A stretch of DNA of 64,000 bases. Source: an uncultured Rhodopila sp. (GTDB lineage: Bacteria; Pseudomonadota; Alphaproteobacteria; Acetobacterales; Acetobacteraceae). A program made the position numbers and the translations under genes. The DNA lies in assembly GCA_903932145.1 (NCBI GenBank), contig CAIZFE010000038.1:62001-126000 (forward strand), in the 5' to 3' direction. The notes under the pieces are model-generated. The model did not search any database and was not told where the DNA came from. It saw nothing but the letters and a program-made list of their open reading frames with translations. Shown here piece by piece: positions 49,819 to 58,679 of this stretch (position 1 is its first letter; every line of letters starts with the position of its first letter).

Positions 49819-50292
49819 TCAGGTGGGATCCGCGGGCGAAAGACCTTGGACCAGGCCGTCCGGGTCCGCGTTCAGCAGTTGGTCCAGGGTGAACGGGTTG
49901 GCGTCTGGCCAGGGGCGCGGGATTTTGTTGCGGCGGTCGCCGATCCTCATTTGGCGAAGCGCATCGGCGTACAAGGCGCCTAGGTCAATCCTTTGCCGCA
50001 TGGACGGCGTAAAGCGGCGTTGCGCGTTGCCCTGGAACGCCGCGATTTCCGTGTGCCAGTGGTCCACGGCCAGGTCATCCGGCGACGCCTGAATTTTGAG
50101 GAGATGAACCATGATCAGAGTCAGGTAGCTCTCAACCGCATGCAGTTCGGATAACCCCACGTCTTCGATCTCCTCGGCGACGTGGACCCAATCGACGTCG
50201 TTCACCCGTTCCCCGCGCCCCAGGCGGCGGAGCAGGTCGGCCTGATGCTGCGACCAGACCAGGACATCGCGTTCATAGAGACCGTCTGACAT
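49819..50292 (-). CDS. DUF29-family protein
   Basis: A 157-residue protein of the DUF29 family, all-helical with the signature '[18 protein letters not shown]' and '[20 protein letters not shown]'. DUF29 proteins are common in cyanobacteria and alphaproteobacteria with no defined function. No signal peptide. It lies upstream of leuS on the same strand, with 49 bases between the start of leuS and its stop. Confidence 0.88.
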
Positions 50293-50349: not shown

Positions 50350-51414
50350 TCAGGCGCAGGCAATCGCGTAAACGTCCTCGACCCCTTCCGGCAGCTTGTA
50401 GTCTTGCCATGACCCGCCCGCGTCCTCGGTCCCGAACACCTGGCCCAGGCGGGTGACGCAATAGATACGGGCGGCGTCGGACGCGTCCGCCGACACGGCC
50501 ATCAGGGTGGAATTCATCTTGATCCCGTGGTCGATCCGCTGCCACGTCTCCGCGAGATCGTTACTGCGATACAGCGCGCCATCGTCGCTGACCGCGGCCG
50601 GCGAAAGACAAGCATACAGCACACGCGGATCGTGCGGAGAAACGATCACGTCATGGCAGTATGTGATCGGCGAGAACCGGCCGATCTCGGTATCGCACCA
50701 CGTCTCACCGCGATCGTCGCTACGGAACAAACCCATGCGCAGCCCCAGAAACACCGTGTCCGGCGCGGCGGCGCTGATGGCGGAGGCGTGCGAGTCCAGC
50801 ATCCCCTCACGATGACCGCAATGCCGCCCGCCGACATTGCTGTGCAGATGCGGCAGATCGGCGAGCTCGATCAACTCGGCCGACATGTCCGCCCACGTCT
50901 CGCCGCCGTCGGTGCTGCGGATGATACCGCTGACTTCCAGCGCGGCGTAAATGTCGTCGGGACGGTTGGGATCGACCGTGATGCGCAGGACCCGGCTGTC
51001 GAAGCCGGCGCGCTCGCAATGACCGGGAGATGTGGCGTTGAGCAACCGAACCCAGGTGTCGCCGCAGTCCTCGCTGCGATACAGGGCGATCGGCGCCGAA
51101 CCCGCATACAGGATATTCGGCCGCGTCGGATGGATGGCGATCGTCCAGATCATGACGTTCCGGTCGGGAAACGCCAGCTTTTCCCAACTGTCGCCGCCGT
51201 CGGTGCTGCGATAGGGACCATCCTGCGTGCCGGCAAAGACGATGTTTGCATTGTTCGGATCGACGAGGATGGCATGCACCTCGGGGTTGGCCGGAAGGCC
51301 GTTGGTCAGCGCTTCCCACGCGCCCTCGCCGGCCTCGCGGCGGAACAGGCCGCCGACAGTCGGGACGCCGCTCGGCGAGGAGGAGGCGCCGGCTCCGGCG
51401 AAGATACGGGTCAT
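50350..51414 (-). CDS. BNR-repeat/sialidase-like beta-propeller protein
   Basis: A 354-residue beta-propeller with BNR/Asp-box repeats: 'GPYRSTDGGDSWEKL', 'LYRSEDCGDTWVRL', 'IIRSTDGGETWADM', 'LFRSDDRGETWCDT' and 'LYRSNDLAETWQRI' repeat the S-x-D-x-G-x-T-W pattern. The fold is shared by sialidases and the photosystem II factor Ycf48, but no sialidase catalytic residues can be placed, and no signal peptide is present at the chosen start. A role as a binding scaffold is likely; function unknown. Confidence 0.85.
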   Translation of the reverse strand: MTRIFAGAGASSSPSGVPTVGGLFRREAGEGAWEALTNGLPANPEVHAILVDPNNANIVFAGTQDGPYRSTDGGDSWEKLAFPDRNVMIWTIAIHPTRPNILYAGSAPIALYRSEDCGDTWVRLLNATSPGHCERAGFDSRVLRITVDPNRPDDIYAALEVSGIIRSTDGGETWADMSAELIELADLPHLHSNVGGRHCGHREGMLDSHASAISAAAPDTVFLGLRMGLFRSDDRGETWCDTEIGRFSPITYCHDVIVSPHDPRVLYACLSPAAVSDDGALYRSNDLAETWQRIDHGIKMNSTLMAVSADASDAARIYCVTRLGQVFGTEDAGGSWQDYKLPEGVEDVYAIACA

Positions 51415-51608
51415 GGCGATGCTTTCTATGGACGTCTGTCGGAAGCGTACCCCCGCTTCGCGCCGATGACCAGGGACGGCCCGCAGCGCATGGGTGATCG
51501 TCCGAACCAATCGTTTCGCCGGATGTCAGCCGCCCTCCCCGATTGTCCTGTCAGGACGAGGCCAAGGCGGACATATTCGTCATCCACGCCGTTCCGGAGG
51601 TGCGCGGC

Positions 51609-52233: not shown

Positions 52234-52425
52234 ATGGAACCCGACGAAATGACTGACTTGCTCGGTGCGGCCCGCGAGATGCTCGCGGCGCTGTGGACGC
52301 GCGCAATGAACAACGAGCTGACCGACGAAGAAGCACGAGCGGTGAAACGTGGGTGCATGGCAATCGCACTGACCGACAAAGGCATCGCGGGCGTCTCGCC
52401 GTTTCCGGGCTGGAGAGAGCGATGA
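52234..52425 (+). CDS. Small helical hypothetical protein
   Basis: A 63-residue protein, mostly helical by composition ('MTDLLGAAREMLAALW', 'TDEEARAVKRGCMAIALTDK'). Its TGA overlaps the ATG of the next gene (ATGA), which is the main reason to call it real. There is no strong ribosome site at the chosen ATG. It would be the first gene of the glycan cluster; function unknown. Confidence 0.5.
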   Translation: MEPDEMTDLLGAAREMLAALWTRAMNNELTDEEARAVKRGCMAIALTDKGIAGVSPFPGWRER

Positions 52426-54965
52426 GCAGAACATTGGTGTTCTGCACCTCTTATGCGGAAACAGAGTCTCTCTGGACGAACCGTTACCGCTTGTGGGTAA
52501 ACGCGATCCGCGGCGGTGATGTCGAACATGACCATGTGTTGCTGGTTGATGACGCTTCTCCGGTTCTGCCGGCGTGGCCGGACACCCGGGTGACAAATCG
52601 CCTGACGGATGGGCCACTGTCCAAGCCCGTTACAATTTATCGATTTGACAAGCGGCTGGGACGACAGGCCCGCACGGTGTATCCTGGCTGGTATCGTTCC
52701 TTTTGCTTTGCCGCGCGGTTTGCTGAGGCCCATGGTTTCGACCGGGTTGTCCATATCGAATCGGATGGCTTCATCGTCAGCCGCACAATGCAGCACTACA
52801 TCAATACGATCACGGATGAATGGATCGCGCCCGGCATCCAAAGCCATGACATGCCGGAATCCGCGATCCAGGTCATGGCGGGAACGGGTTTTCGATCTTT
52901 TGTCGAATTTGCAAAAAAACCTTATAGTGAGAGCGTTGGCTACGAGGCAGAGAATTTACTTCCGTTGACCCGAGTCGTCCGTGAATTCATCGGCTCTCGT
53001 TATGGAGAAACTTTACACCACGTACCCCGTGATGCGGACTTCGTCACTCAGACCAATCCATCGATGCTTGGACAAGCCGATTATTATTGGTGGCTTCGGT
53101 CCGATATTTTGCCATTTTCCACAGCCGGGAAGCCTCCCACGATGACGAGCGATATTCAAAGCGCATCCGAGGCCGATGATCGGTGGCGGCTGGACAACGG
53201 ACCGACCAGGGATAAAGCCCCATCCGATCGGACGGACATTGGGCCTGCCGCGCCGCGAATCATCGCTCTCTCGATGGTCAAGAATGAGCAGGATATTATT
53301 GAGCCGTTCGTTCGGCACACCAGCATGTTCGTCGATCATCACGTTATCCTGGACAATGGCTCGGTCGATGACACCCGGCGAATTCTCACCGATCTGATGC
53401 GAGAGATCGACGGCGTCATCGTGACGTCATGTTCCGAATTCGCCTATTCGCAGTCCGAACGGATGACCAAATTACTCCGTTCCTGCCAGACCGCATTTTT
53501 TGCAGACTACGTTATATTTTTGGATGCTGATGAATTCATCTCCAGTGAAAGCAGATCAGAGTTCGAGCAAACTCTTGCCCGCATACCTGTCGGGGGATAC
53601 GGCCAGATTCCATGGCGAACCTTTGTCCTGACGCCATTTGATCTGGTCCCTGATCAGAATGACCCGCCCCGATCTATGCCATGGCGGCGCACCGCCGAAC
53701 ATGAACGGTATAATGCCGTGCTGCGTTTGGATCGAAAATATTGGCACGACCTTGTCGTTGCCCAGGGTAATCACGGCGTCAACGCGGTTACCGGGCGTTT
53801 AGTGACTGGTTTGCCGCTTGAGGGACTTTACCTTAATCATTTTCCGCTACGAAGCATTAAGCAGTTTATTGCAAAGTCGATTGTCGGCTGGATGGCCTAT
53901 TTGGGCAAGGACCCGCACGCCGGGAAGAAAGGTGACGGCTACCATTGGCGCCACAATTTTTATTCGGCAATCAATGGGGCACCTATCGACTACAAAATGC
54001 TATGTGATTTGAGCATGCGCTCCGATCAACCTACCCACGAATACGACTGGACCATTGATGTCATGCGCGGAGACGCGCCGGATCGCTATGAACGGCGCTA
54101 TTCCAACGGACAATACGCAGATCCATTGGTGCTCGTCGCGAAGTCATGGCAAGCGACATTGGAAGCGCACGAACCACCCATAGCATTCACCCGACAAGCC
54201 CCCCCATCTGACCCAACGGAACTGTCGGAAGCCGAGACGGCCTTCGATTCTCAGTGGCATTGGGAAAATCCCTTTGCGGACGTGGCTCCATTTCGATATC
54301 TGGCTGAGAAATACAGCCCCCAGTCGATCCTTGACGTTGGCTGCGGCATAGGGGCCTATCTCACTCTATTCAAGAACCTCGGCGTCAGGCACGTCTTTGG
54401 CGCCGATGGCATTCCAAAATCTGCTACAATGCTGAGTGACACGGAATATCAGAAAGTCGACCTGACACAGCCATTATCGTTAGGCCGAAAGTTTGATATC
54501 GTGATGTGCCTTGAAGTTGCCGAACACCTGCCTCCCGACGCGTCCTCTACCATCTTGGAGACCTTACGGGCTCACGCCGGGGGATTAATTGTATTTTCGG
54601 CAGCCGAACCGGGGCAGCCGGGCCATGGACACATTAACAATCTGCCGATTGAGCAATGGCTGCGCCAGTGGGAGACCCTGGGTTGGTTGCCATCGTTGCA
54701 GGAAACCTTCGCGATGCGGGCTCTGTCTACCCTATCCTGGTTCAAGCGCAATATCGTTGTCCTCAAGCAAGGCGCCGATTCAGACAGCGAAGCTGCGATC
54801 CGCGAACTGGCGCATATCGGATCACTGCCGTATGGCTGGCATCATACGAATCCCGGTGTGCGCGCGGAGGTCCTGATGGACGATACGCCGCCTCCACCGT
54901 TTGGATACCACAGCGAGAGCCACACCGGCGATCGGCACCCCATCGAAGGCACTCAGAAGTCATGA
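52422..54965 (+). CDS. Three-domain glycosyltransferase-glycosyltransferase-methyltransferase fusion
   Basis: An 847-residue multidomain protein. Residues about 1-240 look like a glycosyltransferase-type Rossmann module with 'VHIESDGFIVSR' near 112 (possible metal/sugar-nucleotide site). Residues about 275-560 are a GT2-like domain: 'RIIALSMVKNEQDIIEPFV', 'HHVILDNGSVDDTRRIL' and 'VIFLDADEF' near 367 (DxD-like). Residues about 610-800 are a class I methyltransferase with motif I 'ILDVGCGIGAYLTLF' near 637 and 'MCLEVAEHLPPD'. The three would add and cap sugars on a glycan. The ATG overlaps the previous stop and its TGA overlaps the next ATG. Codons are visibly more AT-rich than in flanking genes. 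Confidence 0.82.
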   Translation: MSRTLVFCTSYAETESLWTNRYRLWVNAIRGGDVEHDHVLLVDDASPVLPAWPDTRVTNRLTDGPLSKPVTIYRFDKRLGRQARTVYPGWYRSFCFAARFAEAHGFDRVVHIESDGFIVSRTMQHYINTITDEWIAPGIQSHDMPESAIQVMAGTGFRSFVEFAKKPYSESVGYEAENLLPLTRVVREFIGSRYGETLHHVPRDADFVTQTNPSMLGQADYYWWLRSDILPFSTAGKPPTMTSDIQSASEADDRWRLDNGPTRDKAPSDRTDIGPAAPRIIALSMVKNEQDIIEPFVRHTSMFVDHHVILDNGSVDDTRRILTDLMREIDGVIVTSCSEFAYSQSERMTKLLRSCQTAFFADYVIFLDADEFISSESRSEFEQTLARIPVGGYGQIPWRTFVLTPFDLVPDQNDPPRSMPWRRTAEHERYNAVLRLDRKYWHDLVVAQGNHGVNAVTGRLVTGLPLEGLYLNHFPLRSIKQFIAKSIVGWMAYLGKDPHAGKKGDGYHWRHNFYSAINGAPIDYKMLCDLSMRSDQPTHEYDWTIDVMRGDAPDRYERRYSNGQYADPLVLVAKSWQATLEAHEPPIAFTRQAPPSDPTELSEAETAFDSQWHWENPFADVAPFRYLAEKYSPQSILDVGCGIGAYLTLFKNLGVRHVFGADGIPKSATMLSDTEYQKVDLTQPLSLGRKFDIVMCLEVAEHLPPDASSTILETLRAHAGGLIVFSAAEPGQPGHGHINNLPIEQWLRQWETLGWLPSLQETFAMRALSTLSWFKRNIVVLKQGADSDSEAAIRELAHIGSLPYGWHHTNPGVRAEVLMDDTPPPPFGYHSESHTGDRHPIEGTQKS

Positions 54966-55501
54966 CTGTCAACCACTGGTGCCGCGCGGTTATGAATGCC
55001 GAAACCGAAAGGCTGGTCAGGGAACTTGGCCCGTCGGAGCTTGACGCACTGGAAATTTCCGGAGACGCTTGGTCCGGATTTGGATTTCGATCCTACCAAA
55101 GCTGCCACTGGCCAGAATTTGACGTCTGTAAAGATCGACTTCCCGGCAATTTTGATTTTATCGTCGCTGAGCAGGTATTCGAACACATACGGTACCCCCT
55201 TCAGGCCGCACGCAACATCCACCGTATGCTGCGCGGAGGGGGGACGTTTATGATCACGACCCCATTCCTGATCAAAATTCATCCCATGCCGAATGACTAT
55301 TGGCGATGGACCCCGGCTGGCCTTGGCGCACTTCTGGAAGACGCCGGTTTTGGATCCATTCAGGTCGGCGCATGGGGCAACAGGGCCTGTGTCAGCGCGA
55401 ACCTGGGCGATTGGCCCGTTTTCAACCCCGAGGAACACAGCCTGGTGGCCGAAGCGGATGTGCCGCTGGTCGTGTGGGCGACCGCAAGACGAGGCAACTA
55501 G
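54962..55501 (+). CDS. Class I SAM-dependent methyltransferase
   Basis: A 179-residue methyltransferase-type protein. 'FDFIVAEQVFEHIRYPLQAA' and 'MLRGGGTFMITTPFLIKIHP' with 'NDYWRWTPAGLGALLEDAGF' are the post-motif segments typical of SAM methyltransferases that act on glycan or lipid substrates. The N-terminal SAM loop is short ('LDALEISGDAWSGFGFRS') and lacks the canonical GxGxG, so SAM binding is less certain than the fold. Its ATG overlaps the fusion gene's stop (ATGA). Confidence 0.78.
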   Translation: MTVNHWCRAVMNAETERLVRELGPSELDALEISGDAWSGFGFRSYQSCHWPEFDVCKDRLPGNFDFIVAEQVFEHIRYPLQAARNIHRMLRGGGTFMITTPFLIKIHPMPNDYWRWTPAGLGALLEDAGFGSIQVGAWGNRACVSANLGDWPVFNPEEHSLVAEADVPLVVWATARRGN

Positions 55502-55502
55502 G

Positions 55503-56819
55503 TTGAACCGAGAGTTGGCGCGGCGGTCCTCTCGTCTTTCCTGGGCACCGTCTGGCTGGCTGTTGAAACACCCTGTTGCAGATATTTCCCCGGGTACGCA
55601 AATGCTGACCCTGGGATGCCCGGCTGCCTTCTGCGCAGTACGCCTTGGTTTTGCCAATATCAGCTCCACGCCCTTTGTAATCAAACGAGCGATCGCCGCG
55701 CCTTCGACGACCTTTTCCGACTACTGTAATCCGACAGGCGATACCAAATGGACCTCTTTGACCTTCGTTAATGAAGGGGCTGATTCAGACAGGATCGTTA
55801 CGACGATTGACGCCCCAACCGAAATCGTTGTGCGCGGCAATGCACCTGATCAGGCGACGGGGGAGACTTCGGCGCCACGCTGGACATGGACAGATTGGGT
55901 GCCCCTGTCGAGCCTGCCGCGAGCCGACGCTGCAAACGGTGTCAGCGTTCTGATGATTCGGACTCTTCTGGAGGGCAACCAAACCTTAACTATGCCTAAT
56001 GGGACATTCGCCGCCTTCATGGGGCAGCCTGAGCTTAACAAAGGTTTTGATTATTGTGCGGGCTGGTATCCACACGACGCAGTAACTACCACGACGGACA
56101 TAAATACACATTTGGCGCATTTGCAGGTCAATGGGACAGCCGTCGCCTGCGTGCAATTTCTGACACACGCGCCGGGCTTTACTGGATTGATCGCAGGCGA
56201 TAGTCACCAGCAGGGCACGAGCACAACGACCCAGTTTGCAAATCTACTGTTTCGATCCATTCTGTCGATTGGCGCTGAGAACATTGGTTCGACCCCGTTC
56301 GGGTATTGGTCCACGGCTTTCGGAGGGGCGACGACAAACCAAATATTCCTGGCGTGCAATCGAGTTATAAAGCAGGTGAAACCAGCCTTCGCAGTGTTGC
56401 CTGGATGGACTTTCAACGACTATTCAGATGCCGGGTCATCCGACGCTTTTGCGGGGAATTCATTTCTTTCTCATCTTATTCAATCGGCATCCCTCTGCCG
56501 GGACGCAGGTACCGTGCCCATTTTTCTTACACCATTTCCTCGGGATAAATGGAATATGACCGGTCCGCGGGTGAAACACTGGCTTTCCCTCCGGCGGACG
56601 ATTTTAGAAATGGAGGCAACAGGTGCAGTCGTCATCGACGCCACAAAAATTCTTGGAATGGTAACAAATGGCCAATTTGACGGCACCTATCTACCGGAGT
56701 ACTCCGACGATGGCATGCATCCAAACGATGCTGGCCACCTTGCACTCTCAGAGCTATTGATACCCGTTGTTCGTCGCATCTGTGGGCTTGCCGGCGCATC
56801 CAGCCAAACTCATCCGTAA
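55503..56819 (+). CDS. SGNH/GDSL-type hydrolase
   Basis: A 438-residue protein with an N-terminal beta-rich module and a C-terminal SGNH hydrolase domain: block I 'LIAGDSHQQGTSTTT' (GDSH, near 233) and block V 'DDGMHPNDAGHLALSELL' (Asp-His pair, near 405) with 'FGGATTNQ' between. It would act as an esterase, for example removing or adding acetyl groups on a polysaccharide. The TTG at 55503, two bases after the previous stop, is used here; ATG at 55602 is the alternative and would remove 33 residues. No signal peptide seen. Confidence 0.72.
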   Translation: MNRELARRSSRLSWAPSGWLLKHPVADISPGTQMLTLGCPAAFCAVRLGFANISSTPFVIKRAIAAPSTTFSDYCNPTGDTKWTSLTFVNEGADSDRIVTTIDAPTEIVVRGNAPDQATGETSAPRWTWTDWVPLSSLPRADAANGVSVLMIRTLLEGNQTLTMPNGTFAAFMGQPELNKGFDYCAGWYPHDAVTTTTDINTHLAHLQVNGTAVACVQFLTHAPGFTGLIAGDSHQQGTSTTTQFANLLFRSILSIGAENIGSTPFGYWSTAFGGATTNQIFLACNRVIKQVKPAFAVLPGWTFNDYSDAGSSDAFAGNSFLSHLIQSASLCRDAGTVPIFLTPFPRDKWNMTGPRVKHWLSLRRTILEMEATGAVVIDATKILGMVTNGQFDGTYLPEYSDDGMHPNDAGHLALSELLIPVVRRICGLAGASSQTHP

Positions 56820-56831
56820 AGCCGTTCGCTG

Positions 56832-58184
56832 TCAGGCCACAGCCCGTTCTTCGTCCCGTTGAAGAACAGCCGTTCTCAACGCCTGGCCTTTCAGCGCTGC
56901 GGCCTCGGCGGCAGCCGTATCATTAAGCTGATAAAGTAGAGACGAAAGCCAGTGATAGGGCGGATCATAATAAGGCAGCCAGTGAATTATATTTTCGATG
57001 ACCGGCTTGATATCTTCCAGTCTGCCATCTCGACGTAAAATCGCCATGAGTTGGTCGGCAAAATACGGTTGATACGGCCTGAGGTCGATCGCCCTCCGCA
57101 GAGCAAACTCTGCCCCGCCGATGTCCGTTGTCCTGCCCAGCAGGTCGCCCAACAGGCTAAAAACATAGGGATTGTCTTCACCGTAGATCGCAGCCTGTCG
57201 GGCCATCGAAACTGCATCTTCAAGGCGATCCTGCTTGAGCCGAACTCGTGCTAAACAGAGATAGCCGATTGCTGACGTTGGTGATTTTAGCAACCCGGCC
57301 ATCAGCAATTTTTCAGCGCGATCCGGTGCACCATGCTCTGAGATCGCAATTCCCTCCGCGAGCGATTCATTATATTCGTAGGTCATATATCGCGACACGT
57401 ACTCGTGGAATGTGAAGCTACCTTCATTGAGGAAGGGATACCTGTCATCACCTCGCGAGAACTCAAGCCCAAAATGATCTTTGACCGCGGGATGGATTGG
57501 CAATGCATCATACGGAAATGGAGACACGCTCAATGAGCGAGTCATTCTGTCAGTGTCAGCCGGGCTCACATGCAATTTTTCAAAGAGCTGAGTGGCGAGG
57601 CTCCGAAAAATTCGGATGTTCGGATGATGCGGGGTGCGAAACAGTGCTTCCGTCCGAAAGTGAGAGGCGATTTCGTCTGCGATCCGAAAGCCTGAAATTT
57701 CATCGCGTGACCTCTGCCGGTCAATCCAAATCTCAAATAGCCTATCTAAATTAACTATTTTTCGGACATCCAGAGAGGAATACCGAACAAAGGCATCCGC
57801 TGGATCAGTCCCGGCCAGGACGAGACGATTAAGATAGGAATCGCCAACCTCGTTTCCATATGGCCCGCTCGGCAAGAAGCTCGTAGGGGCATTTTTTGGA
57901 TGGGCTGGGCCGGCGAACGGCCAAAGAAAACCCGCAGCCACGAGAGGCACAAAATGCCGCCGCGCTCCTGCGGCGACTCCTTTGAGGTCTATCGCCGGCG
58001 CCAGGTCGAGCACCTGCTCTATCAAGATATCAGCTTTCGCCAGAGATGCCCTGCCTTGTTCCGTCAAGTGCTCGTAGGATGGTAGATACGAGATTACCGA
58101 ACTAATTGTATCCTCGCTAAAGAGGCGATAGAGTTCGCAAAGCGAAGCCATTTGGCAATTTCCGACAAAAACGATCTGCGTCAT
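56832..58184 (-). CDS. WcbI-like putative acetyltransferase fused to TPR repeats
   Basis: A 450-residue protein. The first 250 residues look like WcbI, the capsule-biosynthesis putative acetyltransferase, with its 'IVFVGNCQMASLCELYRLF' start (GNCQ at 8-11). The C-terminal 170 residues are tetratricopeptide-like helical pairs ('AIGYLCLARVRLKQDRLEDA', 'YVFSLLGDLLGRTTDIGGAE', 'YQPYFADQLMAILRRDGRLE'). No export signal. It converges with the SGNH hydrolase gene 12 bases away and so closes the glycan cluster. Start at 58184 is preferred to an ATG 21 bases upstream. Confidence 0.8.
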   Translation of the reverse strand: MTQIVFVGNCQMASLCELYRLFSEDTISSVISYLPSYEHLTEQGRASLAKADILIEQVLDLAPAIDLKGVAAGARRHFVPLVAAGFLWPFAGPAHPKNAPTSFLPSGPYGNEVGDSYLNRLVLAGTDPADAFVRYSSLDVRKIVNLDRLFEIWIDRQRSRDEISGFRIADEIASHFRTEALFRTPHHPNIRIFRSLATQLFEKLHVSPADTDRMTRSLSVSPFPYDALPIHPAVKDHFGLEFSRGDDRYPFLNEGSFTFHEYVSRYMTYEYNESLAEGIAISEHGAPDRAEKLLMAGLLKSPTSAIGYLCLARVRLKQDRLEDAVSMARQAAIYGEDNPYVFSLLGDLLGRTTDIGGAEFALRRAIDLRPYQPYFADQLMAILRRDGRLEDIKPVIENIIHWLPYYDPPYHWLSSLLYQLNDTAAAEAAALKGQALRTAVLQRDEERAVA

Positions 58185-58424: not shown

Positions 58425-58500
58425 TGGCGTCCCGTACCGGATTCGAACCGGTGTTGGTGCCGTGAGAGGGCACTGTCCTGGGCCTCTAGACGAACGGGAC
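58425..58500 (-). tRNA. tRNA-Glu(CTC)
   Basis: The minus strand folds as tRNA-Glu: acceptor GTCCCGT/ACGGGAC, D-arm TCGTCTAGAGGCCCAGGACA, anticodon stem GTGCC/GGCAC around CTCTCAC (anticodon CTC), and T-arm with GGTTCGAATCC. CCA is encoded (58425-58427). Its 3' end points at the AT-rich glycan cluster, the side where integrating elements usually enter tRNA genes. Confidence 0.97.
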
Positions 58501-58679
58501 ATCGGCCAAGAAGGGTTGTTTAGCCCGGGACTTCTGGAACCTCAAGCCCTCAAATGCCGAGTCTGCCACCAGCAGTCATAGCGCATTCATCCGGCGCGGG
58601 GCCCCTCCCCCATCGCTCAGGCATTCAGCCACAACCCGAACCGACCCGGCCACACCGCCGGAATGCAGAACCAATCGCG

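What the first reader, a model, noticed from the sequence alone, without database searches (positions are those of the whole stretch)
52234..58184. AT-rich glycan-modification island next to tRNA-Glu
From about 52.2 to 58.2 kb composition drops (28 G/C in the 60 bases from 53521, hand count) compared with flanks, and genes are joined by ATGA overlaps: small protein, three-domain transferase, methyltransferase, SGNH hydrolase, with a convergent WcbI-TPR gene. The tRNA-Glu 3' end faces the island, a usual entry side for integrating elements. The set could build and decorate a surface or protein glycan not yet described. No integrase or att repeat is visible.
Basis: partly seen in the sequence, partly recalled or inferred. 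Interest (0 to 1): 0.7.

Follow-up and report, generated by a model that had tools for sequence, protein, structure and literature searches.

The report
Modular glycan-building and decorating gene island
A patch of unusual, probably imported genes in a bacterium of the acetic-acid-bacteria family seems to encode one machine that builds a sugar chain and decorates it with methyl and acyl groups, and it includes a sugar-transferring domain that the protein-family libraries searched here do not name.

The parts
52234..52425 (+). 63-aa protein of unknown role, overlapping the next gene by ATGA
   Evidence: 78% identical gene overlaps an N-domain gene in G012; 28 synonymous vs 14 non-synonymous codon changes
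52422..54965 (+). 847-aa chimera: N domain (predicted GT-A fold, unnamed family) + GT2 glycosyltransferase + SAM methyltransferase
   Evidence: Pfam PF13704 at residues 287-377 and PF13489 at 626-751; residues 1-249 are 76% identical to P0002 (N-MT24) and 278-836 are 76% identical to stand-alone P0043
52422..53141 (+). N domain: predicted GT-A fold with invariant VDD (42-44) and HxExD (111-115)
54962..55501 (+). 179-aa class I SAM methyltransferase-like protein
   Evidence: PF13489, PF08241 and PF08242 above gathering
55503..56819 (+). 438-aa two-domain SGNH protein (N-terminal beta domain plus SGNH catalytic domain)
56832..58184 (-). 450-aa WcbI domain plus TPR repeats, convergent
   Evidence: PF18588 58.7 bits, cut-off 29.2; PF14559 28.2, cut-off 25; GNCQ and HHP motifs
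58425..58500 (-). tRNA-Glu (CTC), 3' end towards the island
   Evidence: ARAGORN; differs from most relatives' copies at two T-stem pairs, changed on both sides (pairing read by eye)
58425..58555 (-). tRNA-Glu plus ~55 bp of upstream DNA that stayed with it; breakpoint at its upstream edge
   Evidence: homology to the 7 relatives compared begins at 58,555 (two) or 58,547 (five); their further upstream DNA matches G000 contig C72 instead

Best explanation
The island is a horizontally spread, mix-and-match module that builds and decorates a glycan, probably in the cytoplasm. Two glycosyltransferases in one chain (the unnamed N family and a GT2) add sugars. The fused and the free SAM methyltransferases methylate the product or its end. 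The SGNH protein, which has a carbohydrate-binding-like front domain, adds or removes an acyl group on it. The WcbI-TPR protein holds acyl-CoA and docks on its partners through TPR repeats. Shown by computation: domain identities, intact SGNH residues, a predicted GT-A fold for N, natural fusions that link the parts, and patchy distribution. Suggested only by a crude hydropathy score: no signal peptides or membrane segments. Inferred: order of action, direction of the SGNH reaction, CoA binding by this WcbI, and the identity of the glycan. Confidence about 0.55 for the module as a whole and about 0.2 for WcbI donating the acyl group to SGNH.
For: Fusions among 245 collected proteins: SGNH-N-GT2-MT in P0047 (1288 aa), P0051 and P0037 (SGNH part incomplete); SGNH-N-MT24 in P0039 and P0041; WcbI-TPR-N-MT24 in P0012. 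In same-genus G023 an SGNH-N-MT24 gene, a WcbI-TPR gene and a GT2-FkbM gene lie within about 8 kb. In G293 a WcbI domain is about 7 kb from N-MT24, and in G021 two distant WcbI-like domains are 1.4 kb from the SGNH gene. Genomes with N carry WcbI more often than expected: 6 of 14 against 36 of 298, own genome excluded, nominal hypergeometric p 0.003, not corrected for relatedness. Fold matches: N to GT-A enzymes, SGNH to two-domain carbohydrate acetyl esterases. No 19-residue stretch of the five island proteins exceeds a mean hydropathy of 1.41; the one predicted secreted neighbour used as yardstick reaches 2.04.
Against: SGNH does not co-occur beyond chance with WcbI (2 of 11, p 0.39) or with N (1 of 11, p 0.42) in the same 299 genomes. 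Of the six N-and-WcbI genomes only G293 has both on one contig. Of 14 N loci outside the window that I read (4.7-20 kb each), only 2 (G023, G293) show WcbI; of 5 SGNH loci outside the window, 2 (G023, G021) do. The cysteine in the GNCQ motif is present here but only in 6 of 9 aligned domains. Relatives by fold of the SGNH protein are esterases, not transferases. No sugar-nucleotide, flippase or export gene is among the five proteins. The fused proteins are predictions from public collections, and I did not check their contigs.
Confidence: 0.55

Rival explanations
1. The SGNH protein is an ordinary esterase that edits or strips acetyl groups, and WcbI-TPR is an unrelated neighbour that acts by itself or with other proteins. 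The cluster is a loose collection of glycan genes.
For: The closest folds are acetyl xylan and polyvinyl alcohol esterases; SGNH and WcbI co-occur no more than expected in 299 genomes; WcbI is on the opposite strand.
Against: SGNH and WcbI are each fused to the same N domain in other proteins and sit in one cluster in G023. An esterase fused to glycosyltransferases is odd if it acts only on external polymer.
Confidence: 0.25
2. The module modifies a protein, not a free polysaccharide: TPR repeats bind the protein target, and N plus GT2 build the glycan on it.
For: N is fused to TPR repeats in P0007, P0018, P0035 and P0042 (Pfam column; N position); TPR in WcbI-TPR.
Against: No flagellin or other obvious target gene among the five proteins. 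WcbI is reported from a capsule cluster (PMC4104973, abstract and passages seen).
Confidence: 0.15
3. There is no integrated island: AT-rich glycan genes gathered by ordinary recombination, and the tRNA is next to them only because of a chromosomal rearrangement.
For: No att repeat, no integrase on C38, breakpoint ~55 bp upstream of the tRNA with the other side on C72, chimeric 847-aa gene, related genes near leuS without this tRNA in G018 and G023.
Against: The 3' side of this tRNA differs among the nine relatives readable there; of the ten, G008 has an integrase and G009 a weak match close to it.
Confidence: 0.45

Closest known systems
WcbI (PF18588), capsule biosynthesis protein studied in Burkholderia pseudomallei (PMC4104973)
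   Same: WcbI domain 58.7 bits over a cut-off of 29.2; a cysteine and a histidine in motifs that could correspond to the published Cys14 and His201 (correspondence inferred, that sequence was not fetched).
   Different: Here it carries TPR repeats, and in P0012 it is fused to N and MT24; the cluster is in Acetobacteraceae with SGNH and GT genes.
AT3-SGNH and PatA-PatB type glycan O-acetyltransferases (PMC7448272)
   Same: An SGNH protein beside a partner that may hold acyl-CoA, acting on glycan.
   Different: No membrane acyltransferase among the five island proteins; the parts look cytoplasmic by hydropathy; the donor would be WcbI.
FjoAcXE/PbeAcXE type two-domain acetyl xylan esterases (PMC9105624)
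   Different: GDSH instead of GNSI around the serine, 13% identity, no secretion signal by hydropathy, fused to glycosyltransferases in relatives.
GT-A glycosyltransferases (GT2, GT6, GT8 structures; family numbers partly recalled)
   Different: No Pfam match and no relevant PDB sequence match; no family stands out, rows are tied.

Membership tests
GT-A fold glycosyltransferases (N domain) | GT-A fold | tested here: met
GT-A fold glycosyltransferases (N domain) | acidic DxD-like motif after the central strand | tested here: inconclusive
   HxExD (111, 113, 115) invariant in 23 aligned sequences; profile alignment puts it on the GT2 DAD motif but with probability 0.7%
GT-A fold glycosyltransferases (N domain) | sequence match to a named glycosyltransferase family | tested here: not met
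   0 Pfam families at E<=1 for the domain; no NCBIfam (E<=0.1) or PHROG (E<=0.01) match in that part; no relevant PDB sequence match; CAZy not searched
SGNH hydrolase superfamily | Ser, Gly, Asn, His of blocks I, II, III, V | tested here: met
   S234, N305, H406 invariant, G274, G275 and D403 at 90% or more in 43 sequences; Pfam PF13472 itself is below its cut-off, 23.8 vs 32.9 bits
FjoAcXE-type esterases | GNSI motif around the serine | tested here: not met
   GDSH here, and GDS invariant in 43 sequences; GNSI stated in PMC9105624
WcbI family PF18588 | score over the curated cut-off | tested here: met
   58.7 bits vs 29.2
WcbI family PF18588 | CoA binding and acyl transfer | not testable with these tools
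   needs protein
AT3-SGNH O-acetyltransferases | membrane AT3 domain | tested here: not met
   no AT3 match at E<=0.1 in the five island proteins and low hydropathy; the rest of the genome was not searched for AT3
tRNA-integrated genomic island | direct repeat of the tRNA 3' end | tested here: not met
   no other place in the window with fewer than 5 mismatches in the last 20 bases, or fewer than 3 in the last 15
tRNA-integrated genomic island | integrase gene | tested here: not met
   8 PF00589 matches in G000, none on contig C38
tRNA-integrated genomic island | absent at the same site in relatives, odd composition | tested here: met
   relatives of some genes near leuS in G018 and G023

The most novel reading that the evidence does not exclude
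WcbI and the SGNH protein form a soluble, cytoplasmic acyl-transfer pair: WcbI holds acyl-CoA, and the SGNH protein, with its carbohydrate-binding front domain, presents the glycan acceptor. The pair is tied through an unnamed GT-A domain to chain-building and methylating enzymes, so a single assembly builds, methylates and acylates a glycan. This would supply the partner that WcbI has lacked and would be a membrane-free counterpart of the AT3-SGNH and PatA-PatB systems.
Probability: 0.2. Interest if true: 0.75.

Novelty: new variant of a known kind. Interest (0 to 1): 0.52.

Why it matters
It points to an unnamed, predicted GT-A glycosyltransferase domain that is shuffled among many glycan enzymes, and it offers a testable candidate, outside the pathogen in which WcbI was studied, for the missing partner of WcbI, a protein whose activity could not be shown when it was assayed alone (PMC4104973).

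Tried and rejected
PDB by sequence for the N domain gave 12-oxophytodienoate reductase at E 0.11-0.17, taken as chance (other rows match the methyltransferase part of the profile or are equally weak). Profile comparison of N with the GT2 domain was not significant (probability 0.7%); in the same run the N-Anp1 'hit' is an artefact, because my Anp1 slices ran into the N domain. Heptose linkage: a GHMP kinase beside the G023 cluster best matches HddA but at 147 bits against a cut-off of 600, so it is not claimed. A possible shared secreted neighbour in G012 and G023 is only 26% identical. Literature: no paper in the held library with all six terms chosen for SGNH-glycosyltransferase-methyltransferase fusions, none with at least five of six terms in an earlier try, none with all four terms for Acetobacteraceae tRNA-Glu glycan islands, and 11 papers with the word WcbI, of which one is about its structure; most subscription journals are not covered. 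A Foldseek 'pdb' search of either model could not be run; the VIA second look, an offered library, was used instead. Families absent from its lists are not excluded.

Selection of rows: of the 32 genomes (own included) with a tRNA-Glu match I read 10 relatives' loci; of the 33 (own included) with glcF, 17; of the 33 with leuS, 10, plus G018 and G023, which hold related genes on the leuS contig. L190 stops at the tRNA 3' end, so 3' evidence rests on nine. The breakpoint comparison used 7 of the 10 tRNA loci. The search for GT2-MT relatives scored only the 8000 candidates sharing most words and listed 120 of 199. Alignments used 23 sequences of the N family and 43 sequences of the SGNH family.
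Full report
What is there. The window lies on contig C38 of a 6.66-Mb genome. Contigs of two genomes in its genus match by length, and by the homologous gene they carry, the public records of Acidisphaera sp. S103 and a Rhodopila MAG, both Acetobacteraceae; the species itself is not named. Between leuS and glcF lies a 6-kb patch with GC 0.545. Outside it, 926 windows of the same length in the 64 kb have mean 0.623, sd 0.014, minimum 0.592. Five proteins are encoded: 63 aa, 847 aa, 179 aa and 438 aa on the plus strand, and 450 aa convergent.

The 847-aa protein is a chimera. Residues 1-249 are 76% identical to P0002, a two-domain N-MT24 protein, and residues 278-836 are 76% identical to P0043, a stand-alone GT2-methyltransferase whose first residue falls at the junction. 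The 63-aa gene travels with the N domain: in G012 the pair is kept at 75-78% identity at another chromosomal place, with N followed by a different methyltransferase. The 63-aa gene has the substitution pattern of a coding gene; its role is unknown.

One module. Among the 245 proteins collected, N is fused in one chain as SGNH-N-GT2-MT (3, one with an incomplete SGNH part), N-GT2-MT (4, with the window's own), SGNH-N-MT24 (2) and WcbI-TPR-N-MT24 (1). So each large part of the island, except the free 179-aa methyltransferase, is joined to N somewhere. In G023 an SGNH-N-MT24 gene, a WcbI-TPR gene and a GT2-FkbM gene are neighbours. Presence is patchy: N in 15, SGNH in 12 and WcbI in 37 of the same 299 family genomes, own included, at E<=1e-10. 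Without the own genome, N and WcbI co-occur more than expected (6 of 14 against 36 of 298, nominal p 0.003), though only G293 has both on one contig. SGNH and WcbI do not (2 of 11, p 0.39), nor do SGNH and N (1 of 11, p 0.42). The fusion evidence and the co-occurrence evidence therefore do not fully agree.

WcbI. The published WcbI binds CoA, showed no acetyltransferase activity alone, and was proposed to need a partner that presents the acceptor (PMC4104973, abstract and passages seen). For AT3-SGNH enzymes the authors' model is that the AT3 part delivers the acetyl group and the SGNH domain transfers it to the sugar (PMC7448272, abstract and discussion seen). Putting these together, I propose that WcbI and SGNH divide the same work in the cytoplasm here. 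This is inference, at about 0.2. The simple alternative, an editing esterase, stays open. The window's WcbI has GNCQ and HHP; the cysteine is present in 6 of 9 and the histidine-proline in 9 of 9 aligned domains.

How it got there. In nine of ten relatives read, an RluC-like gene lies within about 2 kb 5' of tRNA-Glu (named by Pfam in one, by homology in the others), while the 3' side differs among the nine that can be read. G008 has an integrase 3.2 kb 3' of the tRNA, and G009 a weak, below-cut-off match about 135 bp 3' of it. That fits an insertion hotspot. In this genome, however, the RluC gene is on C72, and homology to the 7 relatives compared switches from C72 to the window about 55 bp upstream of the tRNA. 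The tRNA has thus been moved beside the glcF-TPR genes by a rearrangement. No att repeat and no integrase on C38 were found. Against a simple tRNA story, a WcbI-TPR gene lies 1.8 kb from leuS in G018 and the G023 cluster lies 15-21 kb from leuS, so the leuS side may itself collect such genes. The island is accessory DNA at a plastic spot; the route is not settled.

Verdict. The reading as a glycan-modification island is well supported; the reading as a tRNA-integrated element is not shown. Novel points are the unnamed modular GT-A domain and the fusion evidence that links WcbI, SGNH, glycosyltransferase and methyltransferase parts.

Noticed in passing
G000 contig C72:4467-5600 (L204, L207) and window 58425-58555: The tRNA-Glu/RluC locus, kept in nine of ten relatives read, is split in this genome about 55 bp upstream of the tRNA; the tRNA also differs from most relatives at two T-stem pairs, changed on both sides.
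   Followed up: partly
G000 contig C55:15593-16057 and C55:19150-19226: The genome's other tRNA-Glu-like gene (88% identical) has an integrase match about 3.1 kb on its 3' side.
   Followed up: no
L105:1895-2890 (G012) and L194:11881-12924 (G023): Two related (26% identity) predicted secreted proteins without Pfam family sit beside N-domain gene clusters in two same-genus genomes; role unknown.
   Followed up: partly
L196:6960-8243 (G018), L194 and L195 (G023): WcbI-TPR genes lie on the leuS contig in two other same-genus genomes (about 1.8 kb and about 21 kb from leuS), though not at the window's position.
   Followed up: partly
L195:206-3007 (G023): A 933-aa protein with a distant SGNH-like C-terminal part lies near the SGNH-N gene; function unknown.
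   Followed up: no
window 50350-51510: BNR/sortilin-type repeat protein with relatives in 31 of 33 same-genus genomes, mostly about 42-51% identical, and 72-78% in four.
   Followed up: no
window 49819-50292: 157-aa gene beside leuS, kept next to leuS in several relatives and duplicated in G008.
   Followed up: no
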